A stretch of 9,524 bases of DNA from Nitrospinae bacterium RIFCSPLOWO2_12_FULL_45_22 (GTDB taxonomy: Bacteria > 2-12-FULL-45-22). Under the pieces are notes generated by a model. The model worked only from the letters and a program-made list of their open reading frames with translations. It did no database searches and had not been told where the DNA came from. Below, in pieces: positions 1 through 9,524 of this stretch. How positions within the stretch are numbered: the first letter of the stretch is position 1; each line of letters begins with the position of its first letter. Made by a program: the position numbers and the translations under genes. The stretch is from assembly GCA_001803565.1 (NCBI GenBank), contig MHDQ01000112.1, positions 1 to 9,524 on the forward strand, read 5' to 3'.

Positions 1-291
1 CCACGCCCCTGCGCGAGGGGCGACCTTGATTAACCAAGTGGTTTATTTGAACATCATGAGTTTCAATCCACGCCCCTGCGCGAGGGGCGACTTACAAAAA
101 AAATTAGCAGAATCAATGATAAATTTGTTTCAATCCACGCCCCTGCGCGAGGGGCGACCAGGAGATGAGGAGCGCAAAGGAACCGTTACTCTTGTTTCAA
201 TCCACGCCCCTGCGCGAGGGGCGACGAGGAAGGACTAATAATTGAATACAAGAGATTTAGTTTCAATCCACGCCCCTGCGCGAGGGGCGAC
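1..291 (-). CRISPR. Type I-C CRISPR array, leader-proximal end (continues past left edge)
   Basis: Five copies of a 32-nt repeat are visible: a cut copy at 1-24 and full copies at 60-91, 127-158, 194-225 and 260-291, all identical. On the plus strand each starts GTTTCAATCC and ends GGGGCGAC. The four spacers are 25-59, 92-126, 159-193 (35 nt each) and 226-259 (34 nt). The repeat holds a 7-bp stem CGCCCCT/AGGGGCG around a 5-nt loop. Known I-C crRNAs carry a 5' handle ending in GGATTGAAAC, so transcription should run on the minus strand. This agrees with the cas genes and puts the leader at 292 onward. Spacer 226-259 is then the newest. Spacers 3 and 4 each have an open frame, consistent with coding-DNA protospacers, but they are too short for this to mean much. 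No repeat degeneracy is seen, as expected near a leader. Confidence 0.98.
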
Positions 292-318
292 AGCCTCTTT
301 ATAACTTCTTGTATTCAA
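242..318. repeat. 12-nt inverted repeat linking newest spacer and leader
   Basis: TTGAATACAAGA at 242-253, inside the leader-proximal spacer, is the exact reverse complement of TCTTGTATTCAA at 307-318 in the leader. The arms flank the first repeat (260-291), so the pre-crRNA could fold with the repeat hairpin inside a larger stem if transcription starts upstream of 318. A chance match of this length between a spacer and a 180-nt leader is unlikely, but AT-rich composition raises the odds. Confidence 0.6.
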
Positions 319-474
319 AGACCTTTTTTGCTATTTTGTGCGAATCCCTCATTTTCATCTTAAAAAATATTTAATTGTCAAAGAGCATTTTTACAACTTC
401 CCGGTTTAAATCATTTTTTAAGCCCTGCGAACTATGCAAGGAAATCCCGTGAGCTTCAGGTTCGCAACAGCATC
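292..474 (-). promoter_or_regulatory. CRISPR leader between cas2 and the first repeat
   Basis: This non-coding stretch of 183 nt is AT-rich and lies directly upstream of the first repeat in the direction of array transcription. On the minus strand it carries CTCTTTGACAATTAAATA, which contains a perfect TTGACA -35 box (376-381). The hexamer 17 bp downstream (353-358, ATGAAA) is a poor -10, so the exact start is uncertain. The proximal part (292-330) should include the recognition sequence used by Cas1-Cas2 for integration. The part next to cas2 holds an inverted repeat, listed separately. No ORF of substance is present. Leader function is inferred from position, composition and array polarity. 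Confidence 0.85.
426..466 (-). repeat. 7-bp inverted repeat just after cas2
   Basis: TGCGAAC at 426-432 pairs exactly with GTTCGCA at 460-466, separated by 27 nt, starting 9 nt past the cas2 stop. It lies in the distal leader. No T-run follows the stem in the direction of transcription, so it does not look like a simple intrinsic terminator. A third TGCGAA occurs at 339-344. From memory, similar TGCGAAC/GTTCGCA pairs occur between cas2 and the array in other CRISPR loci, but this was not checked. It may be a processing or transcription-pausing hairpin, or a protein-binding site. Confidence 0.5.
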
Positions 475-765
475 TTAAACAATCAACGGGCCCTCCTGAT
501 CAACAGACGCCTTTGCTCCGATATGCTCTACACGATGCTTCCAGTTAGACCCAAGATAGTAAAATCTCAGACTGTCTTTCTCCGGATCAATTTCCGAAAT
601 TAACCTATTTTTCAACATCGTCCACTGTGCGGGGTCAACAATGCATTCGAACACCGAATACTGTACCCTTTGTCCGTAATCCATACAGGCACGCGCCACC
701 CTGCGCAGACGACGCTGTCCTTTGCCATCGTCAGTGGCAACATCATAACTTATTAACACAAACAT
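475..765 (-). CDS. cas2: CRISPR-associated endoribonuclease/integrase subunit Cas2 (type I-C)
   Basis: Cas2 forms the central dimer of the Cas1-Cas2 integrase that inserts new spacers at the leader end of the array. The 96-aa product starts MFVLISYDVATDDGKGQRRL, the ferredoxin-like beta1 strand with the conserved Asp at residue 8, followed by RRVARACMDYGQRVQYSVFE, the typical Cas2 signature. It ends in the beta-rich FYYLGSNWKHRVEHIGA segment characteristic of I-C Cas2. Length is normal. It begins 9 nt after the cas1 stop. The only purine-rich site (GAGG, 767-770) lies 1 nt from the ATG, so translation is probably coupled to cas1. It is the last gene before the leader. Confidence 0.97.
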   Translation of the reverse strand: MFVLISYDVATDDGKGQRRLRRVARACMDYGQRVQYSVFECIVDPAQWTMLKNRLISEIDPEKDSLRFYYLGSNWKHRVEHIGAKASVDQEGPLIV

Positions 766-774
766 ACCTCACAC

Positions 775-1806
775 TCACTTCCATACAAACGGCGGATAAT
801 TATCTATATCCCCGCGCAAATAACGCGCCATCAGCAACGCCTGCACATGGAAAAGCAGACCGATTGTAACCTTCTCTTTCAAAAACGGATGCAGTATCTC
901 TTCCTGTTTCCGCTTCTGATAAGCAACTAGGACAGTCTTCCTCGTATCATCATCCATCCATACCGCCCCAGATTCTTTTTTCAGAAATCCCTTGTCCTGC
1001 ACCTGGCAAAGATTGATCAATGAAAGTGCCAGGCGGTCAGCAAAGAAAGGACGAAATTCCTCCATCAGATCAAGTGCAAGTCCGTATCTGCCTGGGCGGT
1101 CTCTGTGCAGGAAACCGACAGCAGGATCAAGTCCCACGGTCTCAAGCGCGGAACGTACATCATGCATCACAATGGTATACAGAAATGACAGCAGGCAGTT
1201 CACATTATCCAGGGGTGGTCTCCGGCTCCGTTCATGAAATCTGAAATTATCTTTCTGCGAAGTAACGAGATGATCGAAGACATTAAAGTATGTATATGCC
1301 GATTCTCCCTCGATTCCCCGCAATACATCCAGCGTCAATTCAGAACTTAATCTCCTCAGATAACCTGCAAGTCTTTGCGATGCCTGCGAAACCGCATCCG
1401 CATCAATCTTGTCCGAATGATCTCTCAGGGCGCGCTGAAGTACTGTACGGCAGTTGGCTATCTTGCCGGTCAATACTGCCTGCGCTATTAAGGCAGAAGT
1501 TTTCAGGTCATCCGCCCGGCGATACTGCTCCCGTCTCAGAAGAACATTACCGGACACAGGCCCCTGAACCTTGGCAAGAAAGTGACCATTCTCCGTTAGA
1601 AAGCTGATTGCTACGCCATTCTCGGCACAGAATCCCATCAGATAAGGGCTGCATGATACCTGCCCGAAGCAGACAATCCCTCCGAGTGTATGGACAGGCA
1701 AGCGCAGGGATATTTCTCCGTCAACTTTAACCACAACTGTCTCGCCTTCTTTCGCTAGATAGGCTCCCTGCGTTGTAACAAAGAGAGTGTTAAGAAGTTT
1801 CTTCAT
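775..1806 (-). CDS. cas1: CRISPR-associated integrase Cas1 (type I-C)
   Basis: Cas1 is the metal-dependent integrase that joins prespacers to the array. The 343-aa protein has an N-terminal beta domain (about 1-80) and a helical catalytic domain. Visible catalytic residues are E166 in RGIEGESA, H234 in VGFLHRDRPGR and D246/E250 in LDLMEEFRP. It opens with MKKLLNTLFVTTQGAYLAKE and ends NYPPFVWK, both typical of the I-C branch. The length is normal and no key residue is missing. Its ATG overlaps the stop codon of the DUF433 gene (ATGA, 1803-1806), and it has only a weak ribosome site of its own, so its translation is likely coupled to that unusual neighbour. In most I-C loci cas1 directly follows cas4. 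Confidence 0.98.
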   Translation of the reverse strand: MKKLLNTLFVTTQGAYLAKEGETVVVKVDGEISLRLPVHTLGGIVCFGQVSCSPYLMGFCAENGVAISFLTENGHFLAKVQGPVSGNVLLRREQYRRADDLKTSALIAQAVLTGKIANCRTVLQRALRDHSDKIDADAVSQASQRLAGYLRRLSSELTLDVLRGIEGESAYTYFNVFDHLVTSQKDNFRFHERSRRPPLDNVNCLLSFLYTIVMHDVRSALETVGLDPAVGFLHRDRPGRYGLALDLMEEFRPFFADRLALSLINLCQVQDKGFLKKESGAVWMDDDTRKTVLVAYQKRKQEEILHPFLKEKVTIGLLFHVQALLMARYLRGDIDNYPPFVWK

Positions 1807-2030
1807 GCTACCACTTCATCCGGGACAATCTGCTCTTCGGTCAGTTCGGCGGCATAGTCAATACAGGCAAGGATATCCTCTCGTGTAATGGAAGGATATT
1901 CTTCAAGGAGATCATCAATGGTATCTCCGTTTGCCAGCATATGGAGAATTCGATAGACGGGGATGCGGGTTCCCTTAATGCATGCCTGCCCGTGACAGAT
2001 TTTGGAATCAATTGAAATGCGGTGAAGCAT
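1803..2030 (-). CDS. DUF433 family antitoxin-like protein inside the cas operon
   Basis: The protein from Met at 2030 has 75 aa and starts MLHRISIDSKICHGQACIKG, followed by TRIPVYRILHML, the DUF433 signature, then a helical part (DDLLEEYPSITREDILACI) that resembles a winged-helix or HTH segment. DUF433 proteins are VapB45-like antitoxins usually paired with a DUF5615 PIN-like toxin. No such toxin is encoded here. I chose the start at 2030 because GGAG (2037-2040) sits 7 nt upstream and family members begin with this residue pattern. An upstream in-frame ATG at 2051 would add MNLSERR but has a poor ribosome site. The stop overlaps the cas1 start by 4 nt. Family assignment is secure, but its role in the operon is unknown. 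Confidence 0.85.
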   Translation of the reverse strand: MLHRISIDSKICHGQACIKGTRIPVYRILHMLANGDTIDDLLEEYPSITREDILACIDYAAELTEEQIVPDEVVA

Positions 2031-2054
2031 ACGGCGCTCCGACAAATTCATTTT

Positions 2055-2273
2055 CTACGCAACAGCCTTCTCTTTAACAATTGAAAGATCAATAAGGTCA
2101 AGAGGATTCTTTGTTGTTCTCTTACTTGCATCAAGTATTTCAATGGCAACAATCCTACCGTCTATTGAATAATCAATAACAACACCATCGAGTTCAACAG
2201 ATTCCTTTATTTGTTCATCGCTTAAAAACTCGATGTTCATAATATCATGCGCCGGATCGTATTCTATTTTCAT
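2055..2273 (-). CDS. DUF2283 family small protein, antitoxin-like
   Basis: The 72-aa product reads MKIEYDPAHDIMNIEFLSDE, then VELDGVVIDYSIDGRIVAIE and ILDASKR. This is the standard DUF2283 pattern of short beta strands ending in a helix. Members are often found next to small toxins of the DUF4258/RelE-like type and are regarded as probable antitoxins, although many have no tested function. The start is supported by AAGGAGG (2282-2288) 8 nt upstream, one of the best ribosome sites in the locus. Its stop is 3 nt from the longer reading of the DUF433 start. The pair sits between cas4 and cas1, preceded by a 10-bp inverted repeat, which suggests an inserted cassette that kept its own control site. 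No toxin gene is visible. Confidence 0.85.
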   Translation of the reverse strand: MKIEYDPAHDIMNIEFLSDEQIKESVELDGVVIDYSIDGRIVAIEILDASKRTTKNPLDLIDLSIVKEKAVA

Positions 2274-2290
2274 TTATTCTTCCTCCTTCC

Positions 2291-2328
2291 AATAACGACT
2301 GATTTGGGATGTCAGGTAAGTCGTTATT
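2291..2328. promoter_or_regulatory. Perfect 10-bp inverted repeat upstream of the DUF2283 gene
   Basis: AATAACGACT at 2291-2300 pairs exactly with AGTCGTTATT at 2319-2328 around an 18-nt loop. It fills most of the 72-nt gap between the cas4 stop and the DUF2283 start, ending 2 nt before the Shine-Dalgarno AAGGAGG. No T-run follows on the minus strand, so it is not an intrinsic terminator for the operon. It could be an operator for the antitoxin-like proteins, an RNA hairpin that sets translation of the pair, or the mark of an insertion. Confidence 0.7.
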
Positions 2329-2345
2329 ACTTTGAAAAAACATCT

Positions 2346-3005
2346 TTAGTCGCTCAATTCGTTGATAACTCCTGCAAGATAATTATTAGCCGCCTTATGT
2401 TTTCCGCAAACCTTCGGCATGCATAGATTCAGGAGCGAGCATTGTTTGCACTTTTTTGAGTATTCAGGTTTCGGCGTGACTCCCGATGCAATAAGTTCAT
2501 GTAGCCTTTTTGCTGCATCCTCTGTCTCCGTCCGTAACTTCTTATCAAAAATAACATCCTCCCTGCGCCGTGTCTGCCCGTAAAAAAGCGCTCCCTCTTT
2601 AATCTCAACATTGAGCATTTCCTCAAGGCAAATCGCCTGAGCGCAAAGCTGCACCTTGTCGCAGTTGTCCGGCTTGGGCTTGCCCCGCTTGTATTCAACA
2701 AGAAAAGGCATCCATGTTCCGTCATCCATTTTATGGAACTCAACCACATCAGCCTTGCCGATTAATCCGAGCCGGAACGACCGAAGCGGCACGCCATATT
2801 CAATACGCACATTCCCTCTCGATTCCCGGTTTGCCGTGTCAACCTTGTCATGCATGATCCTGCCCTCAGCGGTAAACAGATTCTCAGTCCAGATTTGCTC
2901 AATGTGGATTAAGGCGCAACGTCGCTGACAATAAAGATACTGATTCAAAGCAGAAATAGGAGTTAAATCCTCCTCGTCGTAGCTACTAAACTTTTCGTTA
3001 TCCAT
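2346..3005 (-). CDS. cas4: CRISPR-associated exonuclease Cas4 (type I-C)
   Basis: Cas4 is a RecB-like nuclease with an iron-sulfur cluster that trims prespacers and selects for the PAM, acting with Cas1-Cas2. The 219-aa protein shows the N-terminal YLYCQRRC (C26), H52, the nuclease motif GKAD (D86), VEYKRGKP (E104, K106) and the C-terminal cluster [10 protein letters not shown] (C186, C189, C195) with a further C200. Length is typical. The start overlaps the end of cas7 by 8 nt and the ribosome site is weak, so translation is probably coupled. The gene normally lies directly beside cas1; here the DUF2283-DUF433 pair separates them. Confidence 0.96.
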
Positions 3006-4023
3006 GAATCTTTTTTAGTCCTGCAGTGATGTCATCCCACGTCCACAATTCAACACCAACAGGAATTTTATCCTTGTTCACATCAACCTTATAATGTTCA
3101 AATCTACGTGGTGTTTTTACGCTATCTTTTTCCATCTCTTTTATATTTTTCTGAATGTCTATCACCTTGCCGATGTCAAGCAATGCCTGTGCAGGTGCAC
3201 AGCCAAGCATTGCTTGCCTTAACCGCTGTTCCTGATTTGTATCAGTTCCAACGTGCTTGAATACGTAAAGTCCACGACGAGACATAAACCCTTTACTGGC
3301 AGAACGGTCATGATCATACATTTTTGATAGCGCTTCCCATAGAAGAACAAGATCATTCTCCTCTGAAAAACCAGTGCTGTCTGCAAGATGAGCACTAATG
3401 AACCCTTTGGCAGCATAAAGACCGTAAAAAATGAAGTTCTTGCGTCCCATTGTACGAAGCTCATCTTCCGGTTGCTGTTCTTCCCATTCTTCAAATTCCT
3501 TTGATCCGACATTTGCACCTTTAATCTCATTGTCCGTTACCGCCATGCGTGTAATTCCCCAGTCAGGCGGAAGTACCGGGTCAAGTGAGCGGGCAAACGT
3601 AATCTGTACAGGACCACGCACTTGCCCTGCATTGGGGCCTGTGCTCAAAACTGCGCCAAATGTTCTTACGTCAAAGAAGTTTTGGCAGAGCCACCAACGT
3701 GCTTCCATCACTTTCTTTTTGTTGGGTGACCATTTTTTAGTACTGCTGTCCCATGTCGGCATCCCGCCGGTCTCTTCATGTGCTCTTGCGATTTTTGTGT
3801 TGAGATTGGTGGCATGTTCAATAAAAATAGCATTTGGCATTTCGTTTCCGCGTGCCATCTGCACATAGTTTCTTACACGACGTTTTATAGCAACATCGGA
3901 AACCAAGCCCCTCATATCTTGAGGGTCAATGCGCGGGGCATTGCCTGCATCCGGGTCGCCATTAGGGTTGCCGTTTTCACAATCAAACAGATACAGGAAT
4001 TCATAACGATTCTGGATACTCAT
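2998..4023 (-). CDS. cas7: Type I-C Cascade backbone protein Cas7 (Csd2 family)
   Basis: Cas7 binds the crRNA spacer as a multi-copy filament. The protein begins [20 protein letters not shown] and continues [13 protein letters not shown], the Csd2 signature, at residues 18-33. Further family blocks are [14 protein letters not shown] (117-129), GQVRGPVQ (133-140), [13 protein letters not shown] (191-203) and the DRSASKG region near 239-245. At 341 aa it is longer than the roughly 285-290 aa I recall for this family. The extra length appears to lie near 85-105 ([16 protein letters not shown]) and in an acidic stretch at 164-190 with [16 protein letters not shown] (4031-4035) lies 7 nt before the ATG, 30 nt after cas8c. 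Function is confident; the effect of the insertions is unknown. Confidence 0.96.
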
Positions 4024-4053
4024 AAGTTTTCCTCCGTTTCATTGAAATTATTA

Positions 4054-4404
4054 TTAATTAAGTTTTGCAAGCTGTTGATAATACCCAAGTGCAAAAAGAC
4101 TCTGTTCTTCAAGGGTCAATGTGCTTGGCATATTATCTTTCAGTTTCCCGTGAATTTCTTTCAGCCAATCTTCTATCCCGGCAGTCTTGCCTCTCATCTC
4201 AGGTTTTCCAAGATGGTTTTGAGCATTTCTCACCAAACGACCAAGAACGAGTCCAGGTGTCTGGCTTGCTGCTGAATAATAACGCTGAACAACCCCTGCA
4301 CCTACATTGCCAAGAGCATCTCGCTGCAAACGAGCAAGCACTGCAAGCAACCTGCCACAATGGTAAGCTGGATGCGGATGATCTGGATTTAGATAAGTCT
4401 CCAT
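4054..4404 (-). CDS. cas11c: Small subunit Cas11c from an internal start in cas8c
   Basis: An in-frame ATG at 4404 (Cas8c residue 476) is preceded by AAAGGAGGT (4414-4422) with 9 nt spacing. This is a near-perfect Shine-Dalgarno deep inside a gene. It would yield 116 aa starting METYLNPDHPHPAYHCGRLL and ending ALGYYQQLAKLN. Type I-C systems are known to make their small subunit this way: Cas11c is translated separately from the 3' end of cas8c and is needed for a stable Cascade. The size and the NPxHPxxAYxxGRL opening fit what I recall of the characterised Cas11c. The protein should be helical and line the Cas7 filament. The site is seen directly; the role rests on family knowledge. Confidence 0.85.
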   Translation of the reverse strand: METYLNPDHPHPAYHCGRLLAVLARLQRDALGNVGAGVVQRYYSAASQTPGLVLGRLVRNAQNHLGKPEMRGKTAGIEDWLKEIHGKLKDNMPSTLTLEEQSLFALGYYQQLAKLN

Positions 4405-5829
4405 ACCGTGATTACCTCCTTTACGAATGAAATAAGCTTTAATCAAAGCCATACGGCGGTAAAGCAAACTTAACAAAGCAGGATATTCTTGTGACCCTCC
4501 TGAAAACCGCTTTCTTTCTTCTTCGGCAAGCGAAACTATGTGCGGCGCAAGCAGCGGGACAATTCGACCAAGTATTGCTTGCGGGAATGGTTCCCGACAG
4601 ATTGCTGCTCTCCAGAAAGCACGACTGTAAGAGCCAATAGGTTTGATCCAGTCTATGTAATCCTGGTTGGATTTTCGCAGTGGCAGCACTGCTGTTATGA
4701 TACGTTCAAAATTTGACCATTTTGCAAGTTTATCACTGCCTATTGTAGTAATAGCCAAGTCGTCATACCATGTCTGCAACGATAGAACAAGATCTTTAAA
4801 TGAGCCTTCATGCCAGTCACGAACCATAACGCGCCCCGATGAGCCTGAAACAAGCATGGCATAGAATTCGTTATTGAGAAGGTTCGGCTTCTCACCAGTT
4901 GATAAGGAATCAAGTGTCTTCTTTGCTTCGAACATTGCATCGGCAAACTCTTTCTCACCCGATACCTGCATCCATGCCAATGGATCGTCTTCTGTTCCTT
5001 CGATAGCTTGCTTGAACCAATAAACAATATAGGCATTGCCTAAGCTGACTTTATGTTTGTCAATAAGATCATTCAGCGCTGTCACATAGGTTTTTGCCGT
5101 TTCTTGGGAGGTGGCTGCGTTAAAAGCTTTTTTTAGACCATATGAGCAGAAGGCATCTTTATCAAAAGAAATCAGGCTATCACCTCCGCGCCCGCCAACG
5201 CCTTTTAATCCTCGCACCTTATCTTCATGTCTCTCGACAGGGTCAACTAAATCACCCGTTATGAGGCAACGCACTTTTGGTTTTTTGTCTTTCTTGTTTT
5301 TGCTATTCTGTTTAATTGGACTTGAACGTTGCTTCATAAATTCATTACGCCACCAGTCATGCCAATCAGGCATATCAACTAAATTGACTGCTCCAATTCT
5401 TACCGCAGCGAAATCGCCCTTCTTAGCTTTCATTTGTTTTAATTTTTTGCAGATAACGGCGCGGTTATCCGAACGATCGAGAGCTTGTGCTGCCGTTGAC
5501 AATATAGGCATCGTTGAGCTTGCGCGTTGTAACAGTTCGACAAATGTCTTGAATTTTGGCGTTATTGACATTAAAACATCCGTTCCCTGATAAAGGGTCA
5601 CTGTAGAAAGCTTATCAACAAGAAAGTGAGCGCCGTCCTTTGCTTGAGCTTTTGTTCCGGCGTGAGGGCTATATTGAGGCTGCCCTTTTTTATCGTCTCC
5701 CAACGGTATTACTTCCGGGTTCTCCCCTTTATCATCAAAAGCAATCAACCATTTCAATGGGCGTTCAGTAAAGCCTGACTCTGTAGCGAGTCCACGTTTT
5801 TCTGCATATTTTAAGACATGATGTAACAT
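4054..5829 (-). CDS. cas8c: Type I-C Cascade large subunit Cas8c (Csd1 family)
   Basis: Cas8c recognises the PAM and recruits Cas3. The 591-aa length is usual. It starts MLHHVLKYAEKRGL with LKWLIAFDDKGE (25-36), and carries the Csd1 blocks RCLITGDLVDPVERHE (187-202), LKGVGGRGGDSLISFD (208-223) and AFCSYG (226-231). GGAGG (5836-5840) lies 6 nt before the ATG, inside the last codons of cas5c, and only 1 nt separates the cas5c stop from this start. The C-terminal 116 residues form a separate reading unit, cas11c, with an internal start listed separately. A Lys-rich stretch at 170-186 is probably a surface loop. No defect is seen. Confidence 0.96.
   Translation of the reverse strand: MLHHVLKYAEKRGLATESGFTERPLKWLIAFDDKGENPEVIPLGDDKKGQPQYSPHAGTKAQAKDGAHFLVDKLSTVTLYQGTDVLMSITPKFKTFVELLQRASSTMPILSTAAQALDRSDNRAVICKKLKQMKAKKGDFAAVRIGAVNLVDMPDWHDWWRNEFMKQRSSPIKQNSKNKKDKKPKVRCLITGDLVDPVERHEDKVRGLKGVGGRGGDSLISFDKDAFCSYGLKKAFNAATSQETAKTYVTALNDLIDKHKVSLGNAYIVYWFKQAIEGTEDDPLAWMQVSGEKEFADAMFEAKKTLDSLSTGEKPNLLNNEFYAMLVSGSSGRVMVRDWHEGSFKDLVLSLQTWYDDLAITTIGSDKLAKWSNFERIITAVLPLRKSNQDYIDWIKPIGSYSRAFWRAAICREPFPQAILGRIVPLLAPHIVSLAEEERKRFSGGSQEYPALLSLLYRRMALIKAYFIRKGGNHGMETYLNPDHPHPAYHCGRLLAVLARLQRDALGNVGAGVVQRYYSAASQTPGLVLGRLVRNAQNHLGKPEMRGKTAGIEDWLKEIHGKLKDNMPSTLTLEEQSLFALGYYQQLAKLN
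4414..4422 (-). promoter_or_regulatory. Internal Shine-Dalgarno for cas11c
   Basis: AAAGGAGGT on the minus strand lies within the cas8c codons for RKGGN and 9 nt before the internal ATG at 4404. It is as strong as or stronger than the ribosome sites before the annotated genes here, which argues that it is selected and not a by-product of codon choice. Confidence 0.85.
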
Positions 5830-5830
5830 A

Positions 5831-6550
5831 TCAGCCCTCCGGTTTTAGAACGTCATCGCTCTCATATGGTGGCACCCTCATAATTCCGCCCCGAACTGAA
5901 GCGTGAAAAACACTGATGAATTGTAGAGAATATTCGTCATTCGATTTTCTGAGATCAAAGGTGTCGTAAAGCATCGTTCCGATTTCGGCAGAGTAGTCAT
6001 TGGGCGTTTTATTTATTTCAATTTTTGTGTCTTCAATAAGCTCAAAATATGCAGGGAACTCCCGGCAGCCGAAGAATGGCTGATAAAAACATTTCCCATG
6101 TCCCGCAAGCCTCAGGAATTGTGCATCGTGTCCTTGAATATTGGCTTCTCCATTTCTGAATCGCATATGGGCATAAAGTTTATAATGAACATCTTTAAGT
6201 GCCATGGTCTGCCGCTGCGTTCGTCCCTTTAATTCATTATCCATATCATCAGCCAGAAATGGTTCTTCTATTTCAGCCTTGCTTTTCATCCATTTAGAAG
6301 CATCTTGGATACTGATATTACCCTTTACCTCATTGCGTCGCAGGGCGATATATCTAGGCGGCGACAGAATTTCTACTTTTTCAATCTGCCAGTAGAAACC
6401 ATAAGACCTTTTCCAGTAAATTGCGTCAAATATCCCCCGCGATGCAGAAGGCGTAATAACAGGATAGCTGAAACGCTCAACTTTCATCTCAGGCCGTGTG
6501 AAGCAGGCAAAATCTCCCCACACCTCAAGACAATGAGTTTTACCTCGCAT
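5831..6550 (-). CDS. cas5c: Cas5c (Cas5d) crRNA-processing endoribonuclease of type I-C
   Basis: In type I-C, Cas5 replaces Cas6: it cuts the pre-crRNA below the repeat hairpin and stays on the 5' handle as part of Cascade. From the chosen start the protein has 239 aa: MRGKTHCLEVWGDFACFTRP, then RFSYPVITPSASRGIFDAIY and the RTQRQTMALKDVHYKLYAHM block. Y45, K119 and H122 are candidate counterparts of the known Tyr, Lys and His catalytic residues; the alignment is by eye. The C-terminus has the GCREFPAYFE block. I chose the start at 6550 because AGGAGG (6558-6563) precedes it by 7 nt. An in-frame ATG at 6568, overlapping the cas3 stop as ATGA, would add MKGGKV but lacks a good site. It is followed by cas8c after 1 nt. 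Confidence 0.94.
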   Translation of the reverse strand: MRGKTHCLEVWGDFACFTRPEMKVERFSYPVITPSASRGIFDAIYWKRSYGFYWQIEKVEILSPPRYIALRRNEVKGNISIQDASKWMKSKAEIEEPFLADDMDNELKGRTQRQTMALKDVHYKLYAHMRFRNGEANIQGHDAQFLRLAGHGKCFYQPFFGCREFPAYFELIEDTKIEINKTPNDYSAEIGTMLYDTFDLRKSNDEYSLQFISVFHASVRGGIMRVPPYESDDVLKPEG

Positions 6551-6557
6551 AACTTTT

Positions 6558-6563
6558 CCTCCT
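6558..6563 (-). promoter_or_regulatory. Shine-Dalgarno that decides the cas5c start
   Basis: AGGAGG on the minus strand lies 7 nt before ATG 6550 and downstream of the alternative ATG at 6568, so it can only serve the shorter cas5c reading. Confidence 0.8.
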
Positions 6564-6564
6564 T

Positions 6565-8874
6565 TCATCCAATCCAGATATTGAGAGCCCCTGATGGAAT
6601 AAGTCCCAACACAGGATGGTAATCTTCTTTTCTAATGTAAATAAACCAATCGCTTTGTTCCCTCTCCTTTCTCCCTGCCACCTTCACAGGTATAAGTGAA
6701 TCCCAAATAGTGTCATCAGGTTTAGGGCGATAGAAGCTGATGCTGAGCGGACGGGCTCGTTTAATCCATTCAGAGGTCAGTCCGATTTTATTCCCTTCAT
6801 CACAAAGCTCGTCGAATTTTTTGATGAGTGGCTGGTATGGCACAAGCACGTTGATGGCGTCCTGTTTTATCAATCGATATTCCCTCGCTATATCTGGAAA
6901 ACTTCCCGCCATGACATATTCCAATAGCCTTTGAGTTTTCTTCATCGCTTCAGGCTTACTTATATCGTAAAGCTCACGATAGTAAGCTGTTATGAAATCC
7001 AGATTATCGAGTAGCATTTTATCCGCCCCATGTCGCCTGAACAACATTTTTGTAATCTGCGCTGCTTGCTTATAATAATCATCCGGGAATTCGCTTTCAT
7101 TACCTTTAATCAACGGCTGAAATACATGAACCTCTCCAAGTGTTTCTTGTCTGCCTTCGCGGTTGCATCTGCCAGCCGCCTGTATGATAGCTTCAAGCGG
7201 CGCATATGCTCTGTAGACCACAGGGAAGTCCACATCTACTCCTGCCTCGATACATTGTGTAGCAACAAGATGAACAGCTTCTTTGTTAAGCAGTCTGTTA
7301 CATACTGTATCTAAAACATCTCTGCGATGAGACGGACAGAGATTTGTAGAAAGATGAAGGGCTTTCTCACCAATTTTCTCCCAGAGTATCCTGGCATGAC
7401 GTTTAATGTTTACGATGCATAATGCCTGCTCATGCCCCTTTAGGCAGACCGCTAAGTCATCCCAGCTTATACCTCCGTCAGGATTGTCCCATGAAACACA
7501 TGTGCGCTTCATATTTTTAAAAAGGGATTGAGGCTCAGAAACAATTTTATGTGACTGCCAGCCGGTTATAGAATGAGACTTGACAGTTTTATGCAGATGC
7601 TCAAAAGCCGGTTGGGTTGCAGTAGAAAAAACCACACTTGAACCATAACCATAGGCAAGATGAGATAATGCTGCAAGCGTCGGCACTGCAAGATTCGCAG
7701 GCAAAGTTTGAACTTCATCAAATAATATTACAGAATGTGTTAGCCGATGAAGTTTTCTGCAAGCTGAAGGACGATTAGAAAAAAGCGATTCAAGCATCTG
7801 CACGCTTGTGGTTACAATTAAAGGCGCGTCCCAGTTCTCGGCAAGCAACCGCCTCTGTCTTTCAGCAGTCTCAAGTTCACCTGATTTGCCTTCGCTATCG
7901 GATTTAGTTTTTTCAAGCCCGACTTCCGCAAGTGAATGATGTTCCAAAACATAGTATTGTCCAAAATGAGATTCAAAAATACTCCTGTAAATAGATGCTG
8001 TTTGTTCAATGATTGAAAGATATGGAAGTACAATTATGAGTCGTCTCAATCGCCTCTCAATAGCATGTTTCAGAGCAAATGCCAACATTGCCAGTGTCTT
8101 GCCGCTACCAGTTGGTGCGGTAAGAGTAAACAAGCCTGTTGCCGAATCTGCTGCTTTAAGACAGCTATTAAGCAATGAGGCCCGAACCTCTGTCACGCCT
8201 TGCGCTGCCTGTGTTTGCGCTTGCACTTCTTTTATGTGCTCAAGCAATATCCCCAATGCACGTTCTTTTTGTAATTTCGGTCCGGACCGCCTATATTGCT
8301 TTCCTTCTGATGTGCCATTGAAATGGGCTTCAGTGTCAAGAAAATCCGCATCAACAAGACAAGAAAATACCATGCGAACATCCAGCATTGTGTTGATAGT
8401 GCTATTTAAGTCGTTGCCTAATAACGTATGATTAATTCTTGGGTTTATGCCATCAGCGAGCAGTCGGGATTTTATGACATCAAGATTTGATTCACTTAAA
8501 CGGAGTTGTAGAGGATGATTTATTCCAAGTTGTTTTGGATTGATAGCACTTAGATGATTTTTGCTGAAATGCTGCAACCCAATGTGATGTCCTTCAATTG
8601 CTAATGCGGCAGCTATGGCTTTAAATTCTTTTGAAAGAGCCAACCAAGCACCTAGTGACCAATGATCAATTCCTTGTGCTTCGCCTTTTAGCCTTGCTTG
8701 AAACAAATCCCCATATTTGCCGAGGTCATGAAGAAGTCCAGCCAAAGCTGCCTCATCTGCTAAAAGCGTATCTGCAAGGAATTCACCGGCCAACTTACTG
8801 ACTGAGGATAGATGATCCGATAGGTGATGCTTAATACCCGCTTTATTACGGCTATGCGCATAAAATTCCTTCAT
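6565..8874 (-). CDS. cas3: CRISPR-associated nuclease-helicase Cas3 (HD plus DExD/H)
   Basis: Cas3 is recruited by target-bound Cascade, then nicks and unwinds DNA in the 3'-5' direction. From ATG 8874 it has 769 aa. The N-terminal HD nuclease shows HHLSDHL (16-22), GLLHDLGK (H49, D50), DHWSLGA (H71), EGHHIGL (94-100) and VDADFLDT (174-181). The helicase has Walker A TAPTGSGKT (252-260), motif II LFDEVQTLP (384-392), motif III FSTATQP, motif V ATQCIEAGVDVDF (538-550) and motif VI QAAGRCNREG (565-574). Motif II reads DEVQ, not the DExH form. GGGAG (8880-8884) precedes the ATG by 5 nt. The frame stays open upstream to a TTG at 8994, but that stretch does not resemble Cas3. It is the first cas gene of the operon. 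Confidence 0.96.
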   Translation of the reverse strand: MKEFYAHSRNKAGIKHHLSDHLSSVSKLAGEFLADTLLADEAALAGLLHDLGKYGDLFQARLKGEAQGIDHWSLGAWLALSKEFKAIAAALAIEGHHIGLQHFSKNHLSAINPKQLGINHPLQLRLSESNLDVIKSRLLADGINPRINHTLLGNDLNSTINTMLDVRMVFSCLVDADFLDTEAHFNGTSEGKQYRRSGPKLQKERALGILLEHIKEVQAQTQAAQGVTEVRASLLNSCLKAADSATGLFTLTAPTGSGKTLAMLAFALKHAIERRLRRLIIVLPYLSIIEQTASIYRSIFESHFGQYYVLEHHSLAEVGLEKTKSDSEGKSGELETAERQRRLLAENWDAPLIVTTSVQMLESLFSNRPSACRKLHRLTHSVILFDEVQTLPANLAVPTLAALSHLAYGYGSSVVFSTATQPAFEHLHKTVKSHSITGWQSHKIVSEPQSLFKNMKRTCVSWDNPDGGISWDDLAVCLKGHEQALCIVNIKRHARILWEKIGEKALHLSTNLCPSHRRDVLDTVCNRLLNKEAVHLVATQCIEAGVDVDFPVVYRAYAPLEAIIQAAGRCNREGRQETLGEVHVFQPLIKGNESEFPDDYYKQAAQITKMLFRRHGADKMLLDNLDFITAYYRELYDISKPEAMKKTQRLLEYVMAGSFPDIAREYRLIKQDAINVLVPYQPLIKKFDELCDEGNKIGLTSEWIKRARPLSISFYRPKPDDTIWDSLIPVKVAGRKEREQSDWFIYIRKEDYHPVLGLIPSGALNIWIG

Positions 8875-9010
8875 TGCCACTCCCTTTTTCCTCATAAACC
8901 GTTCCCCTGTCCTGGCTCTTGTTATGGTTCCATTCCACAATCTTTTTGTCTCTGGAGATAAGTATTTTACTTTCAATAATCTGGTAGTGTACAAATTCAG
9001 TGCTTTGCAT
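8852..9010 (-). pseudogene. 52-codon ORF with an ORF6N-like N-terminus, overlapping the cas3 start
   Basis: From ATG 9010 a short frame reads MQSTEFVHYQIIESKILISR and then DKKIVEW before running into unrelated sequence. It stops at TAG 8852-8854, 23 nt inside cas3. AGGAG (9017-9021) sits 6 nt before the ATG. The IIESKI...R.KK(V/I) pattern matches the start of ORF6N-domain proteins, phage-derived antirepressor-like proteins that open with I-I-E-S-K-I-x-L-I-R-G-x-K-V. Here one residue (Ser) is extra and the following LDxDLAxLYG block is absent, so only about the first 25 residues survive. It may be a remnant joined to the cas operon, or it may now act as a translated leader coupled to cas3. The family match is from memory. 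Confidence 0.45.
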
Positions 9011-9112
9011 ATCGATCTCCTACGTCAGAAAACCTGTCACGGGTTACCGATACGCGTCACCGGCCGCATAAATGGGATGTGTCTCTATTTTGCTATTTTA
9101 ATTTTAAAATTA
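9011..9112. other. Intergenic region upstream of the cas operon
   Basis: This gap should hold the cas operon promoter. Besides the GTCAC repeats it contains a perfect 12-bp palindrome AATTTTAAAATT at 9100-9111, directly after the stop of the membrane-protein gene. The minus strand shows two TAAAAT-like -10 boxes around 9095-9106, but no matching -35 box was found, so no promoter is called. There is no GC-rich stem with a T-run, so read-through from the upstream gene into cas3 remains possible. Confidence 0.4.
9036..9063. promoter_or_regulatory. GTCAC direct repeat, 20-bp phase, upstream of the cas operon
   Basis: GTCACGGG at 9036-9043 and GTCACCGG at 9056-9063 share GTCAC and repeat with a 20-bp period, close to two helical turns. 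A GGTTACC palindrome (9042-9048) lies between them. The block is GC-rich within AT-rich surroundings and sits 26 nt upstream of the ORF6N-like ATG. It could be an operator or the end of a mobile element. I do not recognise it. Confidence 0.35.
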
Positions 9113-9524
9113 TTAGGCTATACTCTCTCCCAGGATACGCCGGGCAAAGAAACATACCCCACGCATCTTGCAGTGGATACAGACGTATTTGCCAAAGTAT
9201 TTCATCATAAAAAAATTCAGGCCCACAAAGAGCAATAGATTGGTCAGCATCCAATAATTAAAGGCAAAGATAAGGGAGGCTACCATAGCAATTATGGGTG
9301 CCTTGGTCCCCCAGTAATCCCAGTAGGATTGGAAGCTAGCTTCGTCCCGCATAAATTCCTCGGGGTCACCCTTGCTATAGAACCGGCTAGCCAGCTTGCC
9401 CCAGCCGAGATGACAATTCTTACCGTAGTAATAGCAGTGGATACAGCTCTTCTTCCTCAGGTGATAGAGGAGCATATAAAGCGAATAGCCGAGAAATATA
9501 AAAGTAAAAATAGGATAATCAAAA
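9113..9524 (-). CDS. Cysteine-rich small membrane protein, 5' end outside the window
   Basis: The frame is open from the window edge to TAA 9113-9115. The first Met inside the window (9475) would give 120 aa, but 16 codons upstream encode DYPIFTFIFLGYSLY without a stop, forming a hydrophobic helix that continues into MLLYHL. The true start is therefore probably beyond the edge. After this helix come basic residues (HLRKK) and the motif CIHCYYYGKNC (Cx2Cx6C), then two membrane segments (about 58-73 and 77-93 from the Met), then a second motif CIHCKMRGVC (Cx2Cx5C) and a basic tail. By the positive-inside rule both Cys motifs face the cytoplasm and could jointly bind a metal or Fe-S cluster. I do not recognise a named family. 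No link to CRISPR function is evident. Confidence 0.75.
   Translation of the reverse strand, partial: FDYPIFTFIFLGYSLYMLLYHLRKKSCIHCYYYGKNCHLGWGKLASRFYSKGDPEEFMRDEASFQSYWDYWGTKAPIIAMVASLIFAFNYWMLTNLLLFVGLNFFMMKYFGKYVCIHCKMRGVCFFARRILGESIA

What the first reader, a model, noticed from the sequence alone, without database searches (positions are those of the whole stretch)
1803..2328. Two antitoxin-like genes (DUF2283, DUF433) built into a type I-C cas operon without a toxin
The canonical I-C order has cas1 directly after cas4. Here two genes of families usually found as antitoxins lie between them, and the second overlaps cas1 by ATGA, so cas1 and cas2 translation probably depends on it. The usual toxin partners (DUF5615 or DUF4258/RelE-like) are absent. 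Possible roles are autoregulation of the adaptation genes, an antidote to a toxin elsewhere that makes loss of the operon costly (a logic like CreTA), or a counter to phage-delivered or host toxins. The arrangement is seen directly; the roles are speculation.
Basis: partly seen in the sequence, partly recalled or inferred. Interest (0 to 1): 0.72.

Follow-up and report, generated by a model that had tools for sequence, protein, structure and literature searches.

The report
Two toxin-stripped antitoxin genes inside cas operon
Between two genes of a bacterial CRISPR immune system sit two leftover antidote genes whose matching poison genes were deleted, one completely and one down to its last 19 codons, so this is mainly the scar of two toxin-antitoxin modules and not a purpose-built part of the immune system.

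Summary
The arrangement is real. An intact DUF2283 gene (2055-2273, minus) and an intact DUF433 gene (1803-2051, minus) lie between cas4 and cas1 of a type I-C operon, and DUF433 overlaps cas1 by ATGA. Relatives explain it. (1) In two Nitrospirota I-C loci (L025, L091) the same gap holds the same DUF433 followed by an intact DUF5615 toxin gene. In most DUF433 loci the DUF433 stop overlaps the toxin start at the ATGA that here starts cas1, so the toxin was removed from start codon to start codon. (2) Relatives of this DUF2283 follow a DUF4258 toxin. Its last 19 codons survive here at 2274-2330 and carry the ribosome-binding site of DUF2283. So the pair is two decapitated toxin-antitoxin modules in tandem. 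The cas4-cas1 junction is a recurrent insertion site: 14 of 38 scorable Nitrospirota loci carry RhuM, BRO/DinD, S23, PIN-AbrB or DUF433-DUF5615 genes there, and the last inserted gene overlaps cas1 by 4 nt in 10. The most likely present role is mostly passive: DUF433 now provides the coupled upstream reading frame for cas1. A domesticated regulator or antidote role is not excluded.

The parts
2346..3005 (-). cas4 of the type I-C operon; its stop codon lies 15 nt before the clearly aligned toxin remnant
   Evidence: Pfam PF01930 and TIGR00372
2274..2330 (-). C-terminal remnant (18 codons plus stop) of a DUF4258-family toxin gene, VITTYLTSQISRYWKEEE*; the rest of the toxin is deleted
   Evidence: 47 of 60 nt identical to the 3' end of the DUF4258 gene of L153, L154 and L158; the next best 60-mer in the window reaches 32 of 60
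2282..2288 (-). AAGGAGG, Shine-Dalgarno sequence of DUF2283, inside the toxin remnant
   Evidence: read directly; the same AAGGAGG is in L153, L154, L155, L156, L158 and L162
2055..2273 (-). DUF2283 gene, intact orphan antitoxin-type gene
   Evidence: PF10049 E 2.6e-16; closest Nitrospirota relatives 83-86% identical; half of the 10 relatives found have an intact DUF4258 partner directly upstream
1803..2051 (-). DUF433 gene (COG2442, VapB10-like), intact orphan antitoxin; likely start ATG at 2030
   Evidence: PF04255 E 6.2e-26; 85-88% aa identical to the DUF433 of L025 and L091, which keep the DUF5615 toxin
1803..1806 (-). ATGA overlap of the DUF433 stop and cas1 start; the site where the DUF5615 toxin gene was removed
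   Evidence: same ATGA joins DUF433 to DUF5615 in L025 and most other loci
775..1806 (-). cas1c
   Evidence: TIGR03640 E 1.9e-158
475..765 (-). cas2
   Evidence: TIGR01573 E 6.7e-21

Best explanation
The DUF2283-DUF433 pair is what remains of two separate type II toxin-antitoxin modules, DUF4258-DUF2283 (toxin first) and DUF433-DUF5615 (antitoxin first), that came to lie in the cas4-cas1 gap of a type I-C operon. That gap repeatedly receives small co-directional genes in this group of I-C systems. Shown from sequence: (a) the DUF433-DUF5615 module is intact at this position in two relatives; (b) here the toxin was lost exactly from its own start codon to the cas1 start codon, so cas1 took over the ATGA overlap the toxin had with DUF433; (c) the DUF4258 toxin is gone except for its last 19 codons, which carry the ribosome-binding site of DUF2283; (d) the promoter-like block in front of DUF433 in L025 and L091 is absent here. 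Inferred: the toxins went first because antitoxin loss before toxin loss is lethal. The leftover antitoxin frames persist because they are recent, harmless, and translationally upstream of cas1, so that a frameshift or stop in DUF433 would reduce Cas1 and Cas2 output. They are therefore mostly passengers and a translational bridge, and not a toxin control device.
For: L025 and L091: cas4 - DUF433 - DUF5615 - cas1 with the same DUF433 (85-88% aa, 84.9% nt; next best non-cas relative 78.2% nt). DUF433 homologues: 32 of 44 assessable loci have an intact DUF5615-type gene directly downstream, 25 of these with the same 4-nt overlap. Junctions: window GTAGCATGAAGAAACTTC; L025 toxin start GTTGCATGAAGATATTT; L025 cas1 start ATGAAAAAACTTC. 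DUF4258 remnant: 47/60 nt and 14/18 aa identical to the toxin C-terminus of L154, adjoining DUF2283 with the same TAA-ATG spacing. A parallel scar in another genome: L156 keeps only ISRYWKEGQ* of the toxin plus AAGGAGG in front of an intact DUF2283, at an unrelated locus. Antitoxin without working toxin is common: 5 of 10 DUF2283 relatives and 12 of 44 DUF433 loci. The window-specific DUF433 changes are 6 synonymous and 5 nonsynonymous, against 25 and 2 in toxin-keeping L025 plus L091 (Fisher p 0.014), as expected if constraint eased after toxin loss. No consensus promoter in 1700-3100.
Against: Both ORFs are still intact and encode recognisable family members, and DUF2283 shows no clear excess of amino-acid changes, so some selection for the proteins cannot be ruled out. 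The counts behind the relaxed-selection test are small and the branches are long. No strain of the same species with the toxins still in place was available, since only two genomes of this phylum are held. The DUF433 tree is weakly supported because the gene is short. Translational coupling of cas1 to DUF433 is inferred from the overlap, not measured.
Confidence: 0.87

Rival explanations
1. Domesticated regulators: one or both antitoxins now bind DNA near the adaptation genes and set cas1-cas2 expression. DUF433 proteins can bind their own promoter; VapB10 of Synechocystis activates it.
For: VapB10 (COG2442/DUF433) binds an inverted repeat in its promoter region and activates transcription (PMC3834315). 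DUF433 is intact and overlaps cas1; a perfect 10-nt inverted repeat lies upstream of DUF2283.
Against: The promoter-like block in front of the cas-linked DUF433 of L025 and L091 is missing here. The inverted repeat is inside a toxin-coding remnant and is found exactly in no other locus. No promoter match in the region. 41 related I-C operons do without this pair.
Confidence: 0.07
2. Retained antidotes: the orphan antitoxins neutralise homologous toxins brought in by plasmids, phages or neighbouring modules (anti-addiction), so keeping them pays.
For: Cognate-type modules are common in Nitrospirota and other phyla, and the host carries other DUF5615 and DUF4258 genes.
Against: The best DUF5615 match among the host loci examined is 39% identical to the L025 toxin, and none matched the DUF4258 toxin significantly, so a cognate target inside this genome is unlikely. 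DUF433 shows more amino-acid change here than in toxin-keeping relatives.
Confidence: 0.1
3. Addiction device like CreTA: the operon protects itself because its loss releases a toxin held elsewhere.
For: Only the general presence of antitoxin genes in a cas operon.
Against: No toxin gene is in the locus; relatives show the toxins were lost; the other DUF5615 and DUF4258 genes in this genome are distant in sequence.
Confidence: 0.02
4. Assembly artefact: the toxins are absent because of a metagenome misassembly.
For: The genome is a fragmented assembly (321 contigs, 85% complete).
Against: Both junctions give intact, well-spaced reading frames (ATGA overlap; toxin stop codon directly before the DUF2283 start). 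A misassembly would have to hit start codons exactly. A similar C-terminal scar is seen independently in L156.
Confidence: 0.03

Closest known systems
DUF433-DUF5615 modules; VapB10-VapC10 (ssr2962/slr1767) of Synechocystis, PIN-COG2442
   Same: The DUF433 gene is the antitoxin type of this system; order antitoxin-toxin; sequence relation to the solved DUF433 structure 2GA1 (E 5.6e-8); cas-linked relatives keep the PIN-like DUF5615 gene
   Different: Here the toxin gene is deleted and cas1 stands in its place; the promoter-like leader block seen in the cas-linked relatives is gone
DUF4258-DUF2283 modules
   Same: DUF2283 directly after the toxin stop codon, Shine-Dalgarno inside the last toxin codons, as in L154 and L155
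   Different: Only 19 C-terminal codons of the toxin remain, placed just behind cas4
Stand-alone (solitary) antitoxins, e.g. ssr2784a and ssl5025 (DUF433) of Synechocystis
   Same: DUF433 genes without a toxin (PMC4963859)
   Different: Here two orphan antitoxins of different families lie in tandem and the second overlaps a cas gene
Toxin-antitoxin modules near CRISPR-cas loci
   Same: Co-location is known and was judged to be no particularly strong link (PMC2701414)
   Different: Here the modules lie inside the operon, at a junction that is a repeated insertion site in Nitrospirota I-C loci

Membership tests
Type I-C CRISPR-Cas | cas3-cas5c-cas8c-cas7-cas4-cas1-cas2 with I-C specific Cas1, Cas7, Cas8 and Cas5 models | tested here: met
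   TIGR03640, TIGR02589, TIGR01863 and TIGR01876 above cut-off
DUF433 antitoxin family (COG2442) | PF04255 domain over its full length | tested here: met
   residues 12-67, profile 1-56 of 56, E 6.2e-26
DUF433-DUF5615 toxin-antitoxin module | adjacent PIN-like toxin gene (DUF5615) | tested here: not met
   toxin absent in the window; present in L025 and L091 at the same site
DUF433-DUF5615 toxin-antitoxin module | antitoxin neutralises the toxin | not testable with these tools
   needs a rescue assay
DUF4258-DUF2283 toxin-antitoxin module | PF10049 gene directly after a DUF4258 gene | tested here: not met
   PF10049 met, but only the 19 C-terminal codons of the toxin are left
DUF4258-DUF2283 toxin-antitoxin module | demonstrated toxicity and neutralisation for this pair of families | not testable with these tools
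   no paper pairing the two families was found in the held library
CreTA | small toxic RNA (CreT) repressed by a crRNA-like RNA with the Cas effector | not tested
   no toxin gene is in the locus; a CreT RNA was not searched for

The most novel reading that the evidence does not exclude
After their toxins were removed, the two antitoxins were taken over by the operon as small regulators or antidotes, so that the adaptation genes cas1-cas2 are controlled by, and translated through, captured antitoxins; the cas4-cas1 junction would then be a general capture site for such genes in type I-C systems.
Probability: 0.13. Interest if true: 0.65.

Novelty: new variant of a known kind. Interest (0 to 1): 0.42.

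Why it matters
It gives a clear case, with intact relatives for comparison, of how toxin-antitoxin modules inside an immune operon lose their toxins while the antitoxins stay, and of how a cas gene inherits the toxin's translational overlap. It warns against reading lone antitoxin genes in cas operons as designed parts. It also points to the cas4-cas1 junction of type I-C loci as a repeated landing site for RhuM, BRO/DinD, S23, PIN and DUF433-DUF5615 genes. My few searches of the held papers found no description of that, and it can be tested on larger sets.

Tried and rejected
Operator reading of 2291-2328: rejected as first choice, because the repeat lies in the toxin C-terminal codons and has no exact match in other loci. 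Hidden complete toxin in the gap: none. Cognate toxin elsewhere in the genome: the DUF5615 and DUF4258 genes found are distant. Kinship search in the window's own phylum: only two genomes held, no information. DUF433 tree: weak support, though the three cas-linked copies are nearest each other by path length. Solved structures for DUF2283 and DUF5615: none. PADLOC: no matches. Literature on DUF5615 or DUF2283 with toxin or antitoxin terms: no papers. A search that included the phrase 'between cas4 and cas1' listed no paper that held it.

Full report
What is there. The window carries one type I-C operon on the minus strand: cas3 (6565-8994), cas5c (5831-6568), cas8c (4054-5829), cas7 (2998-4023), cas4 (2346-3005), DUF2283 (2055-2273), DUF433 (1803-2051), cas1 (775-1806) and cas2 (475-765), followed by a CRISPR array with the GTTTCAATCCACGCCCCTGCGCGAGGGGCGAC repeat. 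The two small genes are full-length matches to PF10049 and PF04255. DUF433 and cas1 share ATGA at 1803-1806.

The DUF433 half. A search of one genome per species with the window DUF433 found 49 loci. Of 44 loci with enough DNA downstream, 32 have an intact DUF5615-type gene directly after DUF433, and in 25 of these the two overlap by 4 nt, usually as ATGA or GTGA. One of them, L025, is itself a cas locus: cas4, DUF433, DUF5615 (PF18480, E 3e-19), cas1, cas2, with cas1 87% identical to the window's. A second cas locus of this kind, L091, turned up among the Nitrospirota cas1 hits. Their DUF433 genes are each 84.9% identical to the window's in DNA, against at most 78.2% for the non-cas relatives, and the tree places the three nearest each other by path length, without firm support. 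In L025 the DUF433 end reads GTTGCATGAAGATATTT, where ATG starts the toxin, and cas1 starts ATGAAAAAACTTC. In the window it reads GTAGCATGAAGAAACTTC, where ATG starts cas1. The toxin was therefore lost from start codon to start codon, probably through the short ATGAAGA/ATGAAAA similarity (inference), and cas1 inherited the toxin's overlap.

The DUF2283 half. Nitrospirota relatives of the window DUF2283 are rare: 10 of 395 genomes at E 1e-12, the closest six 83-86% identical. In the intact cases (L154, L155, L159, L160, L162) a DUF4258-type gene (L154: PF14076, E 7.5e-7) ends immediately before, or overlaps, the DUF2283 start. The end of the L154 toxin is VVTAYLTSQISRYWKEGQ*. The window, directly before DUF2283, reads VITTYLTSQISRYWKEEE* (2274-2330): 14 of 18 residues and 47 of 60 bases are identical, while the next best 60-mer anywhere in the window reaches 32 of 60. 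This is the remnant of the second toxin. Its codons TGG AAG GAG GAA include AAGGAGG, the likely ribosome-binding site of DUF2283, which would explain why a deletion that spares the antitoxin leaves these codons. In L156, an unrelated locus in another genome, the same thing happened: only ISRYWKEGQ* and the AAGGAGG survive in front of an intact DUF2283.

Toxin loss with antitoxin retention is common here. Among the DUF2283 relatives, L153, L158 and L161 have broken toxin frames and L156 and L157 have lost the toxin: 5 of 10. Among DUF433 loci, 12 of 44 have a short, broken or absent toxin; some of the frameshifts could be sequencing errors. L025 also has, just in front of cas4, an antitoxin-like frame followed by a PIN gene cut after about 41 residues. 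In the window's own genome, contig C117 has an intact DUF433 with a frameshifted DUF5615, and C97 an intact DUF2283 behind a DUF4258 with stops.

Selection. On the three-way comparison of cas-linked DUF433 genes, changes specific to the window are 6 synonymous and 5 nonsynonymous; those of L025 and L091 together are 25 and 2 (Fisher p 0.014), and those of the window's cas1 are 40 and 4. This fits eased constraint after toxin loss, but the numbers are small. DUF2283 shows no clear difference. The block TATAATGAGATACGA...GGAGGTG in front of DUF433, conserved between L025 and L091, is not in the window, and no sigma-70-like promoter was found in 1700-3100. Both genes are therefore probably read from the cas operon (inference).

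The setting. In the Nitrospirota sample, 71 of 395 genomes have a cas1 hit. Of 41 I-C loci read in detail, 38 could be scored at the cas4-cas1 junction, and 14 carry an inserted gene or pair there: RhuM (8, one a fragment), DUF433-DUF5615 (2), BRO-N/DinD-like (2, one in place of most of cas4), AbrB-PIN (1) and an S23-type four-helix gene (1) (tally by hand). In 10 of the 14 the last inserted gene overlaps the cas1 start by 4 nt, as cas4 itself does in many insert-free loci. Insertions also occur at cas7-cas4 and cas1-cas2, and I saw none of these families inside cas5-cas8-cas7. In 29 scorable loci of a second phylum, 26 are tight and 3 have inserts, of which two look like toxin-antitoxin type genes (those two named by eye, not by profile). 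The window is thus one case of a repeated insertion site.

Mechanism. Best reading: two toxin-antitoxin modules entered the cas4-cas1 gap, lost their toxins and, in the DUF433 case, the promoter-like leader, and left two harmless antitoxin frames in an unbroken chain cas4 - DUF2283 - DUF433 - cas1. The origin is shown by the comparisons. The order of events and the present role are inferred. The most likely present role is passive, with DUF433 acting as the coupled upstream frame of cas1. DUF433 proteins can be true antitoxins and promoter-binding activators (VapB10; PMC3834315), so a captured regulator cannot be excluded, and an antidote role could be tested by a simple rescue assay.

Relation to known things. 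DUF433 as a PIN-associated antitoxin was predicted in PMC2701414 and shown for VapB10 in PMC3834315. Stand-alone DUF433 genes are listed in PMC4963859. Toxin-antitoxin genes near CRISPR loci are known and were not considered a strong link (PMC2701414). New here, as far as I could check, are the tandem of two toxin-stripped modules inside a cas operon, the start-codon-exact replacement of a toxin by cas1, and the insertion bias at the cas4-cas1 junction.

Noticed in passing
L114-L152 (cas4-cas1, cas7-cas4 and cas1-cas2 junctions): Nitrospirota I-C loci repeatedly carry RhuM, BRO-N/DinD-like, S23/IVP four-helix, PIN-AbrB, GIY-YIG or GxxExxY-type genes in the adaptation half of the operon, and none of these families was seen inside cas5-cas8-cas7.
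   Followed up: partly
L131, L132, L134, L137, L138, L139, L151, and L123 (fragment): A RhuM-family gene (PF13310, about 350 aa) lies between cas4 and cas1 in eight loci, in most of them overlapping cas1 by ATGA; a possible I-C accessory gene of unknown role.
   Followed up: partly
L090, L115, L117, L118, L124-L126, L131, L133, L139, L140, L150: A four-helix S23-like gene (about 190 aa, PF05635 match below its cut-off) is often found directly upstream of cas4.
   Followed up: no
L114:11009-11965 (coordinates after reversal so that cas1 is on the plus strand): Most of cas4 is replaced by a BRO-N/DinD-like gene, which itself overlaps cas1 by ATGA.
   Followed up: no
L025:4599-5038: Just before cas4 an antitoxin-like frame (79 aa) is followed by a PIN gene cut after about 41 residues: another toxin-truncated module in a cas locus.
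   Followed up: partly
L191 and L192, cas4-cas1 gap: In a second phylum the gap holds what look by eye like a DUF4160-DUF2442 pair and a RelE-like gene; not checked with profiles.
   Followed up: no
window 1-9524: The cas genes are up to 91% identical (Cas1) to Nitrospirota loci although the genome belongs to a phylum with only two held genomes: horizontal transfer or a misbinned contig; GC (44%) does not decide.
   Followed up: partly
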